Assembly (NCBI RefSeq): GCF_038900055.1
Contig: NZ_JBBMQM010000001.1
Coordinates: 806,001-870,000 of the forward strand
Direction of reading: 5' to 3'
Source: Henriciella sp. AS95
GTDB taxonomy: Bacteria; Pseudomonadota; Alphaproteobacteria; Caulobacterales; Hyphomonadaceae
DNA: 64,000 bases
The translations under genes were made by a program, and so were the position numbers. This document shows positions 15,225 to 35,775 of this stretch, in pieces. Below the pieces are notes generated by a model. It was not told the origin of the DNA. It did not search any database and was given only the letters and a program-made list of their open reading frames with translations. How positions within the stretch are numbered: position 1 is the stretch's first letter; every line of letters begins with the position of its first letter.

Positions 15225-15254
15225 ATCCCGATCTCTCCTGATACCCACGATCTG

Positions 15255-18200
15255 CTAAGTCGACTGCGCCATGAAGTTGCGGACGGCATCGGCTGCCAGT
15301 GTGAATTGCGCGAAATTGGCTTTTGATGACGACAAGGCGTTGAGCTGTTGCACCAGTTGCTTGCGGTTGCCTTCGCGTTCGCTCAGCCAGCTGTCGGGCT
15401 CGCCGGAGCTTAGCGCCTGAGAGGCGGCATCCGCCTGGTGTCTGCGCAGGTCTTCGATCAGTCGGCGCGTGGCAAGACGTTCCCAATAGCTCGCATCGTC
15501 AAGATTGCGGGACGCTTCGGCCCGCAGGCGATCGAGGCGAAGGGCTTCGCCAATCTTCAGATAGGCTGAGAACGCATCTTCAAGATCGACGCCGGTTGAG
15601 GCGCAGATCGAAGCGAGGTCCACCCCGATCGGCAAAAGCGGCATCAGGGCGGCCCTGGCGGCCAGGTCTTCGGGGGCGCCAGCGTTTATAAGAGACTGGG
15701 TGCGCCGGCGCAGCTGGCTCAATTCGAACCCGCCAAGCGTATCGGCGAGCTTCTGGCCGAGGATTTCGAAGGCGGGCGCATAGGTATCGACGGCGTCCTG
15801 AACGCTCAGGTCGCGAGACTGTCTGTGCAGGGCCGCAATGATTTCAGCAATTGCGTCGGCGCCGAGCTGCTGAAGGTCCGTCTGGGCATCCGCGCTGATC
15901 TTGTTGTCGAGAGCGTGAATCGCCGCGCGATACTCGGCGTGTCCGAGCAGGACGCGCGCCGTTTCGAAGGCGCGGCAGATCGCGGCGTTCTCGCAATTTG
16001 TCCGTTCTCGAAGGCGCAGCAGCATCAGCGGCCCGCCAGCATCAATGAGCCTGTTCGCCAGAACGGTTGCGATGATTTCGCGGCGCAGCCGATGGGCCTG
16101 CATGGCGTCCGTGAACTTGTGCAGCTCGTCGGGGAAATAGCCGTCCAGTGTTTCGACAAACCACGGATCGTCCGGGACTTTCGACGCGATGATGTCATCG
16201 AACAGGGTAATCTTCGACCATGCCATGAGAACGGCGAGTTCCGGCCGGGTCAGCCATGATCTGGATTCGGCTCGCTCACGCATGTCCGACGTGGTCGGGA
16301 GGCCTTCAACCTGGCGATCGAGGACGCCGCGCTCCTCCAGATAGACCATGAGCCGTTCATTGGCTTCATGATCGCGCGCGGCTGTCGACTCCGCGAGCGA
16401 CAAGGCGCCGGTCTGGCTGTAATTGTGCGTCAGGACATGGGCCGCAACGTCATCGGTCATCTGGGCGAGCAGCGCGTTCCGCTTGCCGGAGGGCAGTTTG
16501 CCGTTTCGCATCGCCTGCGACAGCAGGATCTTTATGTTGACCTCGTGGTCGGAGCTGTCGACGCCTGCCGAATTGTCGATTGCGTCGGTATTGATGCGCC
16601 CGCCTTTCAAGGCAAACTCGATGCGTCCAGCCTGGGTGAGGCCGAGATTGGCCCCTTCGCCAATGACTTTCGCTTTGAGCTCACGGCCATTGACGCGGAT
16701 AGCGTCATTGGCGCGGTCGCCAGCGTCGCCATGTGTCTCGTGTGAGGCCTTTACGTAAGTGCCGATGCCGCCGAACCAGAGGAGTTCGCAGTCGGCCATG
16801 AGGAGGGCGTGCAGCACCTCGTCCGGGGTTGCCTCATCCTGACTGAGGCCCGTCAGCTTCTTGATCTGGTCAGTCAGAGTGATCGACTTCGCCGATCTCT
16901 CAAAGATGCCACCGCCTTCGGAAATCAGCGACTGGTCATAGTCCATCCAGGATGACCGCGGCAGATCAAACATGCGCTGGCGCTCTTCCCAAAGACGGTG
17001 CGGATCCTGCGGGTCAGGATCGATGAAGATGTGCATGTGGTTGAAGGCCGCCTGCAGCCGGATTTCCTTCGACAGGAGCATGCCATTGCCAAAGACGTCG
17101 CCCGACATGTCGCCGCATCCAATGACGGTGAACGGTTCGGTCTGGATGTCCTTGCCCATCTCGCGGAAATGGCGTTTCACCGCTTCCCAGGCGCCGCGGG
17201 CGGTGATGCCCATCTTCTTGTGGTCATAGCCTGCAGACCCGCCAGAGGCGAAGGCGTCGCCGAGCCAGAAGCCGTGCTCGAGGCTGATCTCATTGGCGAT
17301 GTCGGAGAAAGTCGCCGTGCCCTTGTCGGCTGCGACGACGAGATAGGGGTCATCGCCGTCCCAGATGACAGTGTTCTCAGGGTGGTGGACGTCATGGTCA
17401 ACCAGGTTGTCCGTCAGGTCGAGCAGCGAATTGATAAAGGTTCGGTAGGCGGAAATGCCGCCCTGATTACGCTCTTCACGCGTGGCATTCGCAGCGATCT
17501 GTTTGGGAAAGAATCCGCCTTTGGAGCCGACGGGCACGATAACCGCGTTCTTGACCTGCTGCGCCTTGACCAGGCCCAGAACTTCGGTTCGGAAATCGTC
17601 CCGGCGGTCGGACCAGCGAAGTCCGCCGCGAGCGACCGGGCCAAACCGGCAATGCACGCCTTCGACTTGGGGACTGGACATGAAAATTTCGCGGAATGGC
17701 TTGGGTGCCGGGAGGTCCGTGATCTCCTGGCTGGCGATCTTGAAGCTGATGAAGGGGTAAGGTGTGCCGTCTGGCTGGCGCTGCCAGAAATTGGTGCGCT
17801 GGATGGCCAGGATCAGGCGCGTGAGGCGACGAATGACGCGGTCTTCGTCGAGGGACGAGACCTCATTCAGACGCGCTTCGATTTGCTGTTGTTTAGAGAG
17901 GGCGAGCGCCATGCGCTCTGACAGGGTCTCGGGCCGGGAAGGGTCAAACCGTATCGAGAAGAGCTCAAGCAGGGCGCGCGTCAGTTTCGGATGGCGTTTC
18001 AGCGCCTCGATTTGCGTGCTGCGCGCCGGGTCGAGGCCCGTCTGGTGACGGTAGGCACAAAGCGCCCGGCAGAGGGCCGCCTCGCGCCAGTCAGCGCCAA
18101 CCGACAGGACGAGGCCATTGAAGCGGTCATCTTCTGTCTGTCCCATCCAGACAGAAACAAAAGCCTCTTCGAAAAGTGAGGCAAAGGCTTCGAGGTCGAG

Positions 18201-26954: not shown

Positions 26955-27809
26955 ATGACAGATCAGTCACGCAAACTGTTTTTGATCGGGCCTGGTTACT
27001 CGGCCAGCCGGCTGGCGGCGCTTTGCCTCGAAGCCGGTGAGTGGGAGGTGTATGGCACGGCGCGGTCAGCGGACAAGGCGGCGGCGCTCGAGGAGGATGG
27101 CCTCAAGAGCGTGCTCGTCGGCGATAAAGGTGCGATCGAATTCGCGGCCAGGGGCGCCCACTGGGTTGTATCGACGCCGCCGTCGGATGATGGCTGTCCC
27201 GGTTTTGGCCTGGCAGGGGAATTCGCCCAGAGCGCGGCTTCGATCACCTATCTCTCGACAACTGGTGTGTATGGCGACCTGCAGGGCGGCTGGGCATTTG
27301 AATGGTTACCGGTCAGCCCCGGATCGAAGCGTGGGGAGAGGCGCGTTCTTGCAGAAAGCCAGTGGTTTGGCGCGAGGCCGGATGTGCGGCTGGTTCGCTT
27401 GCCGGGCATTTACGGGCCGGGGCGATCGCAGCTCGACAAGGTCCGCAGCGGTGATGCGGAGCAGATCATCAAGCAGGGCCAGGTGTTTTCCCGCATCCAT
27501 GTTGACGATCTCGCCGGCGGGCTGAAGGCGCTCATCGACAGGCCTGGGCTGTCTGGCGCGTTCAATCTTTGTGACGATGAGCCGGCTCCGCCTCAGGATG
27601 TGATGGTGTTCGCGGCAGACCTTCTTGGCGCAGCGATGCCGGCCTTCGTCGATATGGAGTCCGCCGATGTCAGCGACATGGCGAAGAGCTTTTATTCAGA
27701 GTGCAAGCGCGTGCCGAATGCGAAGCTAAAGGCGGCGACCGGCTGGCGACCGGCCTATCCGACTTATCGCGAGGGCCTGCAGGCCGTCCTTGATGCTGAG
27801 AAAAGCTAA
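26955..27809 (+). CDS. NAD(P)-binding epimerase-like protein (extended SDR, YeeZ type)
   Basis: 284 residues with an N-terminal dinucleotide site IGPGYSASRLAALCLEAG, then TYLSTTGVYGDLQGGW, LPGIYGPGRSQLDKV and FSRIHVDDLAGGLKALI, which belong to the atypical SDR/YeeZ epimerase group. The usual YxxxK catalytic pair is not evident after TTGVYG, as in other atypical members. Substrate unknown. Divergent from the TPR gene. Confidence 0.85.
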   Translation: MTDQSRKLFLIGPGYSASRLAALCLEAGEWEVYGTARSADKAAALEEDGLKSVLVGDKGAIEFAARGAHWVVSTPPSDDGCPGFGLAGEFAQSAASITYLSTTGVYGDLQGGWAFEWLPVSPGSKRGERRVLAESQWFGARPDVRLVRLPGIYGPGRSQLDKVRSGDAEQIIKQGQVFSRIHVDDLAGGLKALIDRPGLSGAFNLCDDEPAPPQDVMVFAADLLGAAMPAFVDMESADVSDMAKSFYSECKRVPNAKLKAATGWRPAYPTYREGLQAVLDAEKS

Positions 27810-27908
27810 TCAGAGCGATCACAAGACGTTGAGTTCATTGAACGCTGGATCGCCGATCCTTACCTTCCTGGTGCAAGATAAAGACAAACCAGAAGAATTG
27901 GACCCGTC

Positions 27909-28778
27909 ATGAGCGACCCGACATACACCCCCCCGAAAGTCTGGACCTGGGACAAGGAGAGCGGCGGACGGTTCGCCAATATTAACCGCCCAATCGCGGG
28001 GCCGACCCATGAGAAAAAACTGCCGGTTGGCGAGCATCCCATCCAGCTCTATTCGCTCGGGACGCCGAACGGGGTCAAAGTCACGATCATGCTGGAAGAG
28101 CTTCTGGCGGCGGGGCATTCAGGGGCAGAATATGATGCCTGGCTGATCAATATCGGCGAGGGCGACCAGTTCAGCTCCGGCTATGTCGAGCTCAATCCGA
28201 ACTCCAAGATTCCGGTCATGGCAGACCACTCGACCGATCCCGTCACCCGCGTCTTCGAGAGCGGCTCGATCCTCCTCTATCTTGCGGACAAGTTCGGCGC
28301 CTTCCTGCCGGAAGATCACTACAAGCGCACCGAAGCGATCAGCTGGTTGATGTGGCAGATGGGCTCTGCGCCCTATCTCGGCGGCGGCTTTGGGCACTTT
28401 TATGCCTATGCGCCGGAGAAGTACGAGTACCCGATCAATCGCTTTGCCATGGAAGTGAAGCGCCAGATGGACGTGCTCGACCGTAACCTCGCCGACCGCG
28501 AATATATGGCGGGCGACGAATACTCCATCGCCGACATGGCGATCTGGCCTTGGTATGGCGCAATGGCCAAGGGCATCATCTATGAAGCCGGCGAATTCCT
28601 GCAGGTTCAAGAGTACAAGAACGTCATCCGCTGGACCGACCAGCTTGCCGAGCGCGAAGCCGTCAAACGCGGGCGCATGGTCAACCGGACCTTTGGTGAT
28701 CCCGCGAGCCAGCTACGCGAGCGCCACGACGCCAGCGACTTTGATACCAAGACGCAGGATAAGGTCGGCGAATCATAG
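27909..28778 (+). CDS. yghU: Glutathione-dependent disulfide-bond oxidoreductase YghU
   Basis: 289 residues; almost the whole length follows E. coli YghU, e.g. KVWTWDKESGGRFANINRP, LYSLGTPNGVKVTIMLEELL, YVELNPNSKIPVM, GSILLYLADKFG, GGGFGHFYAYAPEKYEYPINRF and GDEYSIADMAIWPW. This Nu-class GST reduces disulfides with two bound glutathiones. The C-terminus is ERHDASDFDTKTQDKVGES; the last three codons differ from the downstream repeat copy, which would give DKVEAAE. The current stop is therefore probably supplied by an insertion. Confidence 0.94.
   Translation: MSDPTYTPPKVWTWDKESGGRFANINRPIAGPTHEKKLPVGEHPIQLYSLGTPNGVKVTIMLEELLAAGHSGAEYDAWLINIGEGDQFSSGYVELNPNSKIPVMADHSTDPVTRVFESGSILLYLADKFGAFLPEDHYKRTEAISWLMWQMGSAPYLGGGFGHFYAYAPEKYEYPINRFAMEVKRQMDVLDRNLADREYMAGDEYSIADMAIWPWYGAMAKGIIYEAGEFLQVQEYKNVIRWTDQLAEREAVKRGRMVNRTFGDPASQLRERHDASDFDTKTQDKVGES
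28715..28767 (+). repeat. Direct repeat copy 1 (3' end of yghU)
   Basis: 53-bp direct repeat with the copy at 29471-29523: the last 41 bp (28727-28767) are identical and the first 12 differ at 4 positions. It codes for the yghU C-terminus. Repeat period is 756 bp. Confidence 0.93.
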
Positions 28779-28784
28779 AGCCTG

Positions 28785-29432
28785 CTAGGACGGAAAATCT
28801 GGCAAGTAGTTCAATACGCGGGCGGAGCTGGAGGTGCTGCGCTGTTTCAGCCTTAGCTTCCAGTTTTGTTCGGTCCGGTCTGCAAGGTCGGAAAGACCAG
28901 CCCGTCGCGCAACATAGGCAAGATCTGCTGCAGCATGGGAAGGTGCTACGGGCGACGCCTCGCACCCCCATGACTGGTGCCATCCAAACATTTGGCTCCT
29001 GAAACCACTTGAAGAATTGATCGCATCAAGATCGCGCAAAAATAGCGTTTCTGCCTTCTCGATGTGCGGTATCGCTCGCTGGCCCAGTCCAAGATCGACA
29101 GCCAGATGGGCCAACATAATGTGGGCGGCGAAAGCCCGGTAATTCTCACCATCAAACGAAGCGATGCCGCCAACAATGCCGCCCTCGCAACCCAAGAAGC
29201 ATGGTTCATCAGAGCCCTCTGTGGTGATGACACCGAACTTGCGTTCGACTTGGTCGAACAGTCCCTGGATGTATTCGTCTCCAGCGCCGGCTTCAGCACT
29301 TTTCTGGATAGACATGCTTCGAACGACACTGGCGGGGTTTTGCTCGATCGAATCTTCGAGTGCAGCGGACTGACTATGGCCTTCGAATGATGCCACCAGA
29401 CAGAGTAGAATTGCAGAAAAAATAACCCGCAT
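28785..29432 (-). CDS. Secreted protein of unknown family, inside the yghU repeat-flanked insert
   Basis: 215 residues; N-terminal signal peptide of ~21 residues (MRVIFSAILLCLVASFEGHS). I do not recognise the family. The mature part has a CFLGC pair (about residues 78-82) and one later Cys in SWGCEAS, a Gly-rich GGIVGGIASF, and a mainly helical second half. Base composition is visibly poorer in GC than its neighbours and codon choice is less biased. The gene fills most of the ~715 bp between the two direct repeats and points against yghU, so it likely arrived with that segment. Confidence 0.7.
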   Translation of the reverse strand: MRVIFSAILLCLVASFEGHSQSAALEDSIEQNPASVVRSMSIQKSAEAGAGDEYIQGLFDQVERKFGVITTEGSDEPCFLGCEGGIVGGIASFDGENYRAFAAHIMLAHLAVDLGLGQRAIPHIEKAETLFLRDLDAINSSSGFRSQMFGWHQSWGCEASPVAPSHAAADLAYVARRAGLSDLADRTEQNWKLRLKQRSTSSSARVLNYLPDFPS

Positions 29433-29470
29433 CTGAGTAGAATAACGCAGATGAGAGACGGTTGATACTC

Positions 29471-29523
29471 ACACGAGTCCCGCGACGCCAGCGACTTTGA
29501 TACCAAGACGCAGGATAAGGTCG
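29471..29523 (+). repeat. Direct repeat copy 2 (displaced original 3' end of yghU)
   Basis: Identical to 28727-28767 over 29483-29523. Read in the yghU frame it gives DASDFDTKTQDKV and then EAAE and a TAG at 29534-29536, so it looks like the native end of yghU cut off by the insert. Confidence 0.9.
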
Positions 29524-29536
29524 AGGCGGCGGAGTA
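29524..29536 (+). pseudogene. Remnant last codons of ancestral yghU
   Basis: GAG GCG GCG GAG TAG continues the yghU frame straight out of repeat copy 2. It has no start or ribosome-binding site of its own. Confidence 0.6.
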
Positions 29537-29540
29537 GCGC

Positions 29541-30452
29541 TTACTTTCCGCCCAGCAGTTCGCCGGCAATATCCTTCATCAGCGCTGCCAGCGTGCGGAA
29601 TTCGGGCTCCAGCGGCGAGGTTGGCCTCCAGATCAGCGAAACGTTCCGATGGCAGTCCGTGTCGTCGATCCGGCGGACGATGAAGTCCGGATCGCGGCGA
29701 GCCTCGGACAGCGCGTACAGGCTCGGCATGATGGCGTAGCCAGCGCCCATGACCGCCATCTGACGGGCGGCATCGAGGCTCGAGCCCTCATATTCAGCGC
29801 TGATTGTCGTCCCAGCGCGTCTAGCGATGTCCTGAATGAGGCGGCTGAGCCGGTGGCCGGACCCTAGCGTCAGGAAGGGACGGGCCGAGAGCTGGTCGAG
29901 GCTGACAGACTCAGATTTCGCGGCAACAAGATCTTCGGGCGAGCCGCAAACCCATAAGTCTTCGCGGAACATGATTTCGCTGCTCATCCCGCCATGCGCG
30001 TCGGCGGTCGAGATGATGACATCGAACCGGCCTTCGCGAAGTCCCTGATCGAGTTCAAGCGTATCGCATTCGCTGACTTTGAGACGGAGTTCGGGAAATC
30101 GCTCATGCAGACGTCGCGTGACAGCAGGTAGGAGATAAGGCCCGATGGACGGCAGGACGCCCAGTCTTATACGGCCAGCCATCGTGTTGTGCGCGCCGAG
30201 GGCCAGCGTCTTCAGCTCTTCAACATCGTTCAGAATCCGGCGCGCCATGCGAACGATGTCCTCGCCGATTGGCGTTACTGTCGCGCCTTTTCGGCCCCGC
30301 TCGAATATTGTGACACCGAGTGTCGCCTCAGCCTCGGCAAGCTGAGTCGAGAGGCTTGGCTGGCTAACATGAAGCCGGCGGGCCGCCTCATGAAAGCGGC
30401 CGCTATCGGCGATCGCAACGATATATTGAAGCTGTCTGAGGGTCGGTCTCAT
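29541..30452 (-). CDS. OxyR-like LysR regulator lacking the peroxide-sensing cysteines
   Basis: 303 residues. HTH at ~1-60 (LRQLQYIVAIADSGRFHEAARRLHVSQPSLSTQLAEAE) and an effector domain closest to OxyR (PSIGPYLLPAVTRRLHERFPELRL, DVIIS, LTLGSGHRLSRL, GYAIMPSLYAL). In OxyR the peroxidatic Cys199 follows GH; here Arg201 does, and the resolving position is Ala210. Cys129 and Cys169 are elsewhere. It cannot use the known disulfide switch and probably senses something else. Divergent from a small basic ORF and the carbonic anhydrase gene. Confidence 0.85.
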   Translation of the reverse strand: MRPTLRQLQYIVAIADSGRFHEAARRLHVSQPSLSTQLAEAEATLGVTIFERGRKGATVTPIGEDIVRMARRILNDVEELKTLALGAHNTMAGRIRLGVLPSIGPYLLPAVTRRLHERFPELRLKVSECDTLELDQGLREGRFDVIISTADAHGGMSSEIMFREDLWVCGSPEDLVAAKSESVSLDQLSARPFLTLGSGHRLSRLIQDIARRAGTTISAEYEGSSLDAARQMAVMGAGYAIMPSLYALSEARRDPDFIVRRIDDTDCHRNVSLIWRPTSPLEPEFRTLAALMKDIAGELLGGK

Positions 30453-30457
30453 GATAG

Positions 30458-30506
30458 TTTTTGATTATCGAAAACACGATTACTTTCAATTGGAACTATC
30501 AATTGG
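30458..30506. promoter_or_regulatory. Candidate LysR operator between the OxyR-like gene and the carbonic anhydrase unit
   Basis: Interrupted palindrome TTTTTGAT-T-ATCGAAAA (30458-30474, one mismatch), starting six bases upstream of the regulator's start codon, plus a direct repeat TCAATTGG (30486-30493 and 30499-30506). The region is AT-rich compared with its surroundings. Several ATAG/CTAT half-sites resemble OxyR-type binding. Likely autoregulation and control of the rightward genes. Confidence 0.5.
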
Positions 30507-30534
30507 TCAACCCACCTGTCTCCTATCACTAACA

Positions 30535-30684
30535 ATGGAGACCAAAGTGACCAGAACCCGAAAAATCCTTCGCCGCCGGAAAATGTTCCGCAAGATGAAG
30601 AAGGATCTTCAGACCAGAATGGCGAGGGTTCATCTGACCGATGCAGGCTGGCCGGCAGGGCAAATCACCCGCTCGCCGGTTTGA
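30535..30684 (+). CDS. Possible 49-residue strongly basic protein
   Basis: From ATG 30535 the frame gives a peptide dominated by Arg and Lys over its first ~35 residues (RTRKILRRRKMFRKMKKD). No good ribosome-binding site is seen before the ATG, and no family is recognised. It is the only coding candidate in the 367-bp stretch 30453-30819; the rest (30685-30819) holds the carbonic anhydrase leader, in which I see no clear motif other than AAAAGGAG before the start. Confidence 0.4.
   Translation: METKVTRTRKILRRRKMFRKMKKDLQTRMARVHLTDAGWPAGQITRSPV

Positions 30685-33129: not shown

Positions 33130-35775
<2,646 letters not shown>

What the first reader, a model, noticed from the sequence alone, without database searches (positions are those of the whole stretch)
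28715..29536. A 41-bp perfect repeat of the yghU 3' end brackets a ~715-bp insert
28727-28767 and 29483-29523 are identical, and 12 more bases upstream match at 8 positions. The second copy reads on in the yghU frame through EAAE to a TAG, so it appears to be the original gene end, while the present yghU takes its last residues (GES) from the insert. This is how site-specific elements that use a gene's 3' end restore their target, but the insert holds a single small gene and no recombinase. It could be a minimal mobile cassette moved in trans, or a remnant.
Basis: partly seen in the sequence, partly recalled or inferred. Interest (0 to 1): 0.72.

Follow-up and report, generated by a model that had tools for sequence, protein, structure and literature searches.

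The report
Gene insertion scar beside yghU
A foreign one-gene piece of DNA was added right after a housekeeping gene and left a duplicated copy of that gene's end behind; at least one related species carries a similar scar at the same gene, which fits a known accident of DNA uptake better than a new mobile element.

Summary
28727-28767 and 29483-29523 are identical, with 8 of 12 matches just upstream. The right copy is the original yghU end: 3 of 13 near relatives, including the sister genome G022, have a yghU ending EAAE-stop without insert, and in G019 the same LysR gene follows directly. The 715-bp insert holds one gene (X, 215 aa, no known family), found in none of the 28 other genomes of the genus and once in the host.

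The mobile-cassette reading gains no support. In relative G002 a different gene lies between yghU and a 339-bp, 91%-identical yghU 3' remnant; G014/G017 show a weak 25-38-bp relic. Repeat lengths and cargo differ; the nearest recombinase gene of the two families searched is about 187 kb away. No strong scar was seen at 80 public yghU loci.

Best reading: homology-facilitated illegitimate recombination at a gene-turnover spot between yghU and metH, the incoming DNA pairing with yghU at one end and joining imprecisely at the other. Main rival: a template switch duplicating 41 bp. A known kind of event; modest interest.

The parts
27909..28778 (+). yghU, GSH-dependent disulfide-bond oxidoreductase, intact; its last residues GES and stop lie beyond the duplicated block
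   Evidence: NCBIfam NF008731 525 bits; orthologues in 27 of 28 other genomes of the genus, G026 having only a 44% match
28715..28767 (+). left copy of the yghU 3' repeat (perfect part 28727-28767)
28768..29482 (.). insert, 54.0% GC against 59.4% for the window, one copy in the genome
   Evidence: no insert at the empty sites
28785..29432 (-). X, 215-aa protein, signal-peptide-like N terminus by eye; convergent with yghU, 6 bp between the two stop codons
   Evidence: no Pfam, NCBIfam, PADLOC or PHROGs match; distant relatives in G056 (30%) and G516 (26%, frame with stops)
29471..29523 (+). right copy of the repeat (perfect part 29483-29523), the displaced original yghU end
29524..29537 (+). 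rest of the original yghU end; with base 29523 it reads EAAE-stop
   Evidence: same ending in G022, G019, G020 and, as DAAE, in the G002 remnant
29541..30452 (-). LysR-type regulator, the original neighbour of yghU; next to yghU in G019, and after a different insert in G017
33133..34998 (-). methionine synthase (part of MetH; the stretch examined was cut at 34998), far edge of the variable region in 14 genomes

Best explanation
This is a scar of homology-facilitated illegitimate recombination. A piece of DNA from a relative, carrying a yghU 3' end with gene X behind it, paired with the resident yghU at one end. Its other end, without homology, was joined by chance a little upstream in the same resident gene end. 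The product is yghU with a donor tail (GES-stop), then X, then a displaced copy of the resident gene end (EAAE-stop), then the old neighbour LysR. The same kind of event happened independently next to yghU in at least one other species of the genus (G002). Shown: the duplication, the empty site in relatives, an insert absent from the rest of the genus, and recurrence in G002 with other cargo and another repeat length. Inferred: that the donor DNA carried a yghU end, that it was linear, and that one joint was homologous.
For: (1) Empty sites: G022 (sister of G000 in the metH tree, 100/99 support), G019 and G020 end EAAE-stop without insert, and G019 has yghU-LysR-carbonic anhydrase adjacent. 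(2) Recurrence: in G002 a lipoprotein-like gene lies between yghU and a 339-bp, 91.4%-identical remnant ending DAAE-stop. In register the two copies are 92.6% identical over 324 nt. They differ at 14 synonymous and 5 amino-acid-changing codons; at three of those five (226, 238, 274) the remnant carries the residue commonest among the relatives, at codon 250 neither copy does, and at codon 180, at the joint, the intact copy does. The two look like two alleles joined rather than one decaying duplicate. (3) The GES-stop tail resembles real yghU tails: 12,417 of 903,202 frame positions (1.4%) in 464 kb give a tail of at most 6 residues starting with a dipeptide seen at genuine yghU ends (the criterion was chosen after seeing the tail). 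Tails starting GE or GD occur in 6 of 76 public yghU loci and in G010. (4) Gene content between yghU and metH differs among the 14 genomes that have both within 7 kb. (5) No recombinase gene near; Ku not found. A ComEC-type gene is present, but 10 of 14 control genomes have one too, so this says little. (6) A comparable product, an old 3' end shifted behind an added module, is explained by this mechanism in PMC5361080 (passages read).
Against: The two copies in G000 are identical over 41 bp, whereas the last 60 nt of the aligned yghU is only 80-90% identical to the 13 near relatives. A foreign donor should leave mismatches unless the crossover fell in the last bases of the gene or the donor was of the same species. 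No donor carrying yghU followed by X was found. The passages read call this process rare. The relic in G014/G017 is weak: scores 15 and 16, reached by 2 and 0 of 200 resamples, while G005 also scores 16 (0 of 200) at a place inside an open frame. No crossover point could be seen in the G000 gene.
Confidence: 0.55

Rival explanations
1. Template switch or slippage repair: DNA synthesis at the end of yghU jumped onto a foreign or distant template, copied X, and returned 41 bp upstream of where it left, so that both copies stem from the same resident allele. No homologous donor end is needed.
For: The perfect 41-bp identity is explained at once; the right edge shows only partial matching, 8 of 12; Ku was not found, so Ku-dependent end joining is unlikely.
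Against: It does not explain why the new tail looks like a genuine yghU tail (1.4% by chance), why the stop codons of X and yghU lie 6 bp apart, or why G002 joins two copies 7% apart.
Confidence: 0.25
2. A minimal mobile cassette that uses the yghU 3' end as attachment site and is moved by a recombinase encoded elsewhere.
For: Direct repeats of a gene's 3' end on both sides, a single gene between them, gene restored; at least one other, and perhaps two, additions at the same gene end in the genus; cargo genes packed tightly against yghU and the repeats.
Against: Repeat extents differ (41/53, 339, about 25-38 bp) and the 339-bp copy is diverged; X and the G002 gene fell in different clusters; X is single-copy and absent from the 28 other genomes of the genus; tyrosine- and serine-recombinase-type genes exist in the genome but the nearest is about 187 kb away; no match on plasmids, phages or viral contigs.
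Confidence: 0.1
3. Remnant of a larger integrated element whose recombinase and other genes were later deleted.
For: The geometry of a 3'-end target.
Against: In this window the genes between yghU and metH are X, LysR, carbonic anhydrase, an MFS transporter and a glyoxalase-like protein, none phage-, plasmid- or integrase-like; the insert is tightly packed around one gene; X is not in PHROGs. Downstream genes of the relatives were not family-searched, apart from the G002 gene.
Confidence: 0.05

Closest known systems
Homology-facilitated illegitimate recombination (HFIR), described in Acinetobacter, Pseudomonas stutzeri, Streptococcus pneumoniae and in E. coli conjugation (PMC3240628: listing and start of abstract seen; the original papers seen only as references)
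   Same: Gain of foreign DNA next to a homologous anchor, other joint without extended homology, no recombinase
   Different: Here inferred from a natural product; the donor and the crossover point are unknown, and the two copies are identical over 41 bp
Old 3' ends shifted behind new modules in Vibrio cholerae T6SS arrays, and orphan 3' regions of Rhs loci (PMC5361080, passages read)
   Same: A new gene enters behind a conserved anchor and the old gene's 3' end is pushed downstream as a remnant
   Different: The anchor here is a redox enzyme gene, not an effector; cargo function unknown
Small variable segments between conserved stretches (PMC2884548, passages read)
   Same: Short segments differing between relatives, 10-18% flanked by direct repeats, attributed largely to illegitimate recombination
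   Different: Most repeats there were below 30 bp; here 41 bp and 339 bp of a gene's own 3' end
Integrative elements at gene 3' ends (general features recalled, no call)
   Same: Direct repeats of the gene's 3' end, gene restored by the incoming DNA
   Different: No integrase, 0.7 kb, variable repeat length, no second site found

Membership tests
HFIR product | foreign DNA added beside a stretch homologous to the donor | tested here: met
   X in 0 of 28 other genomes of the genus; EAAE-stop without insert in G022, G019, G020. That the donor shared the anchor is a separate row.
HFIR product | one joint lacks extended homology | tested here: inconclusive
   29433-29482 matches the rest of yghU no better than shuffles (score 9; 147 of 300 reach it), but 8 of 12 match at the edge
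HFIR product | donor molecule carried the homologous anchor | tested here: inconclusive
   GES-stop tail resembles genuine tails (1.4% by chance); donor not found
Integrative element at a gene 3' end | direct repeat of the target gene's end on both sides | tested here: met
Integrative element at a gene 3' end | own integrase | tested here: not met
   The insert's gene X has no family match; nearest tyrosine-recombinase-type gene about 187 kb away, the one serine-recombinase-type gene on contig C3
Integrative element at a gene 3' end | same core or same cargo at several sites | tested here: not met
   One copy in the genome; repeat extents differ among G000, G002 and, weakly, G014/G017
Transposon | terminal inverted repeats and transposase | tested here: not met
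   Of 9 inverted pairs in 27700-30600 none has its arms at the insert's edges; X has no family match
Integron gene cassette | folded attC site behind the gene and integron integrase | tested here: inconclusive
   No inverted repeat of 12 nt or more with an arm in 29433-29523; integron integrase not searched for separately from PF00589

The most novel reading that the evidence does not exclude
The 3' end of yghU in this genus is a preferred landing place for single-gene cassettes: X, the lipoprotein-like gene of G002 and perhaps the gene pair of G014/G017 each sit tightly between yghU and a copy of its end, as if the gene end served as an attachment site for an unidentified recombinase acting in trans.
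Probability: 0.08. Interest if true: 0.7.

Novelty: new member of a known kind. Interest (0 to 1): 0.3.

Why it matters
In my view natural products of homology-facilitated illegitimate recombination are seldom easy to read, because the anchor usually leaves no trace. Here a gene end left behind shows which end is old and which is new, and two species (perhaps more) carry independent cases at one gene. That would make the yghU-metH interval a usable place to study how single genes are added without mobile elements.

Tried and rejected
Rejected: chance repeat. Rejected: plain tandem duplication, because DNA absent from the rest of the genus lies between the copies and relatives have empty sites. 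Rejected: transposon with long target duplication (no inverted ends at the edges, no transposase-like gene). Thought unlikely: Ku-dependent end joining (Ku not found). Looked for the donor of X and did not find it: 100 relatives (one distant match), the 28 others of the genus (none), 384 other genomes of the class (one distant match), genome contigs, viral contigs, plasmids, phages; the scans reach close relatives only. The structure model of X is poor (mean pLDDT 50.7), so no fold search was made. The yghU trees were too weakly supported to tell which of the two G002 copies is resident. A sliding comparison of yghU gave no clear crossover point in G000. A first comparison of the G002 remnant was out of register and was redone in register. 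The library searches: one search found the HFIR papers; one search gave one unrelated paper, with the word yghU, listed 10 of 17,519 papers, four of them holding yghU, and by title none treats yghU as an insertion place.

Full report
Observation. It is not chance. In a 464-kb sample of the genome the only other pairs that passed the filter lie in one unrelated stretch, L152. yghU is intact. Its stop and that of X, on the other strand, are 6 bp apart. The right copy continues as EAAE-stop and is followed after 3 bases by the stop codon of the LysR gene.

Empty site. The genus has 29 genomes held, counting this one. In 14 of them yghU and metH lie within 7 kb (MetH identity). Among these the nearest relative in the metH tree is G022 (100/99), whose yghU ends EAAE-stop with no insert. 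G020 and G019 end the same way, and G019 continues directly into LysR and carbonic anhydrase, as does the right flank here. The other ten near relatives end differently (EG, EA, EGK, GEGT, ESKD), and none has X. So the right copy is the old gene end, and the DNA from 28768 to about 29482 came in later. Strains of the same species were not available, so an empty site within the species is untested.

The insert. It is 54.0% GC against 59.4% for the window, but about 5% of same-sized windows here are as low, so composition alone proves little. It occurs once in the genome. X has no Pfam, NCBIfam, PADLOC or PHROGs match. Relatives of X were found in 1 of 100 related genomes (G056, 30% identity) and in 1 of 384 other genomes of the class (G516, 26%, with stops in the frame). 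Neither lies beside yghU on the 3.4-3.5-kb stretch fetched. No relative was found in genome contigs, viral contigs, plasmids or phages. A single-sequence structure prediction was poor.

Recurrence. In G002, yghU ends EG-stop and a lipoprotein-like gene begins within a few bases. It is followed by 339 bp of yghU 3' sequence, 91.4% identical to the intact copy and ending DAAE-stop. In register the two copies are 92.6% identical over 324 nt, closer to each other than either is to any of the 13 other genomes (at most 89.5%), though the tree grouping them is weak (84/33). They differ at 14 synonymous and 5 non-synonymous codons. At three of the five (226, 238, 274) the remnant has the residue commonest among the relatives; at codon 250 neither copy does; at codon 180, at the joint, the intact copy has it. 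This fits two functional alleles brought together better than one decaying duplicate. In G014 and G017 related small genes follow yghU and are themselves followed by 25-38 bp resembling the yghU end (scores 15 and 16; 2 and 0 of 200 resamples reach them). I regard this as likely but weak, because G005 also scores 16 (0 of 200) at a position inside an open frame. The other nine of the 14 genomes show nothing above background (22 to 167 of 200 resamples reach their scores). In one search, only G000 and G002 of the 28 genomes examined have a strong repeat. Of 80 public yghU loci (whether any belongs to the genus was not checked) none scored above 15 in up to 3 kb downstream, median 11 (no resamples were made there). 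A score of 15 equals that of the G014 relic, so weak relics there are not excluded.

Mechanism. A recombinase-driven element should have a fixed core and a recombinase. The repeat lengths differ and the cargoes differ. Of five tyrosine-recombinase-type genes in this genome the nearest is about 187 kb away, and the one serine-recombinase-type gene is on contig C3. In the listed part of the genus-wide search no tyrosine-recombinase-type gene lay within 7 kb of a yghU; that listing was cut short. Ku was not found. A ComEC-type gene is present, but 10 of 14 control genomes also have it, so it is weak evidence for DNA uptake. The pattern of anchor gene, new gene, displaced old 3' end is what homology-facilitated illegitimate recombination can yield. 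It has been proposed for Vibrio cholerae effector arrays and for orphan Rhs ends (PMC5361080, passages read), and for small variable segments in general (PMC2884548, passages read). The tail GES-stop looks like a genuine yghU tail, which only 1.4% of random frame positions do (criterion chosen afterwards). That suggests that X travelled with a yghU end.

What speaks against it. The perfect identity over 41 bp is surprising if the donor was another species, since this end of the gene differs by 10-20% among the relatives. Either the crossover fell in the last bases of the gene, or the donor was conspecific, or both copies are resident and the event was a template switch. I cannot separate these without a donor or other strains, hence 0.55 against 0.25.

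Verdict. A correct and well-read observation. The mobile-cassette reading is not excluded but has no positive support beyond the geometry. It is a new member of a known kind of event. Three library searches were answered; the last, with the word yghU, listed 10 of 17,519 papers and none of the titles concerns yghU as an insertion place. This is not a claim that none exists.

Noticed in passing
L152 15049-15182, 15722-15855, and 15649-15694, 16009-16054 (own genome C1 near 1.195 Mb): A 154-aa open frame (15227-15691) lies between two copies of a 134-bp repeat (86.6%); the repeat holds a palindrome-like GGACCCCGGATCAAGTCCGGGGT stretch and looks like an interspersed intergenic repeat rather than a gene end.
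   Followed up: partly
downstream of yghU in 14 genomes of the genus (loci L034-L046 and the window): The stretch between yghU and metH is a gene-turnover spot: LysR, carbonic anhydrase, MFS transporter, glyoxalase-like and unidentified genes come and go between near relatives.
   Followed up: partly
L042 (G014) and L041 (G017), genes behind yghU: G014 has two related small lipoprotein-like genes in tandem, the first broken by a stop; G017 has one gene that, by eye, looks like a fusion of the start of the first and the end of the second.
   Followed up: no
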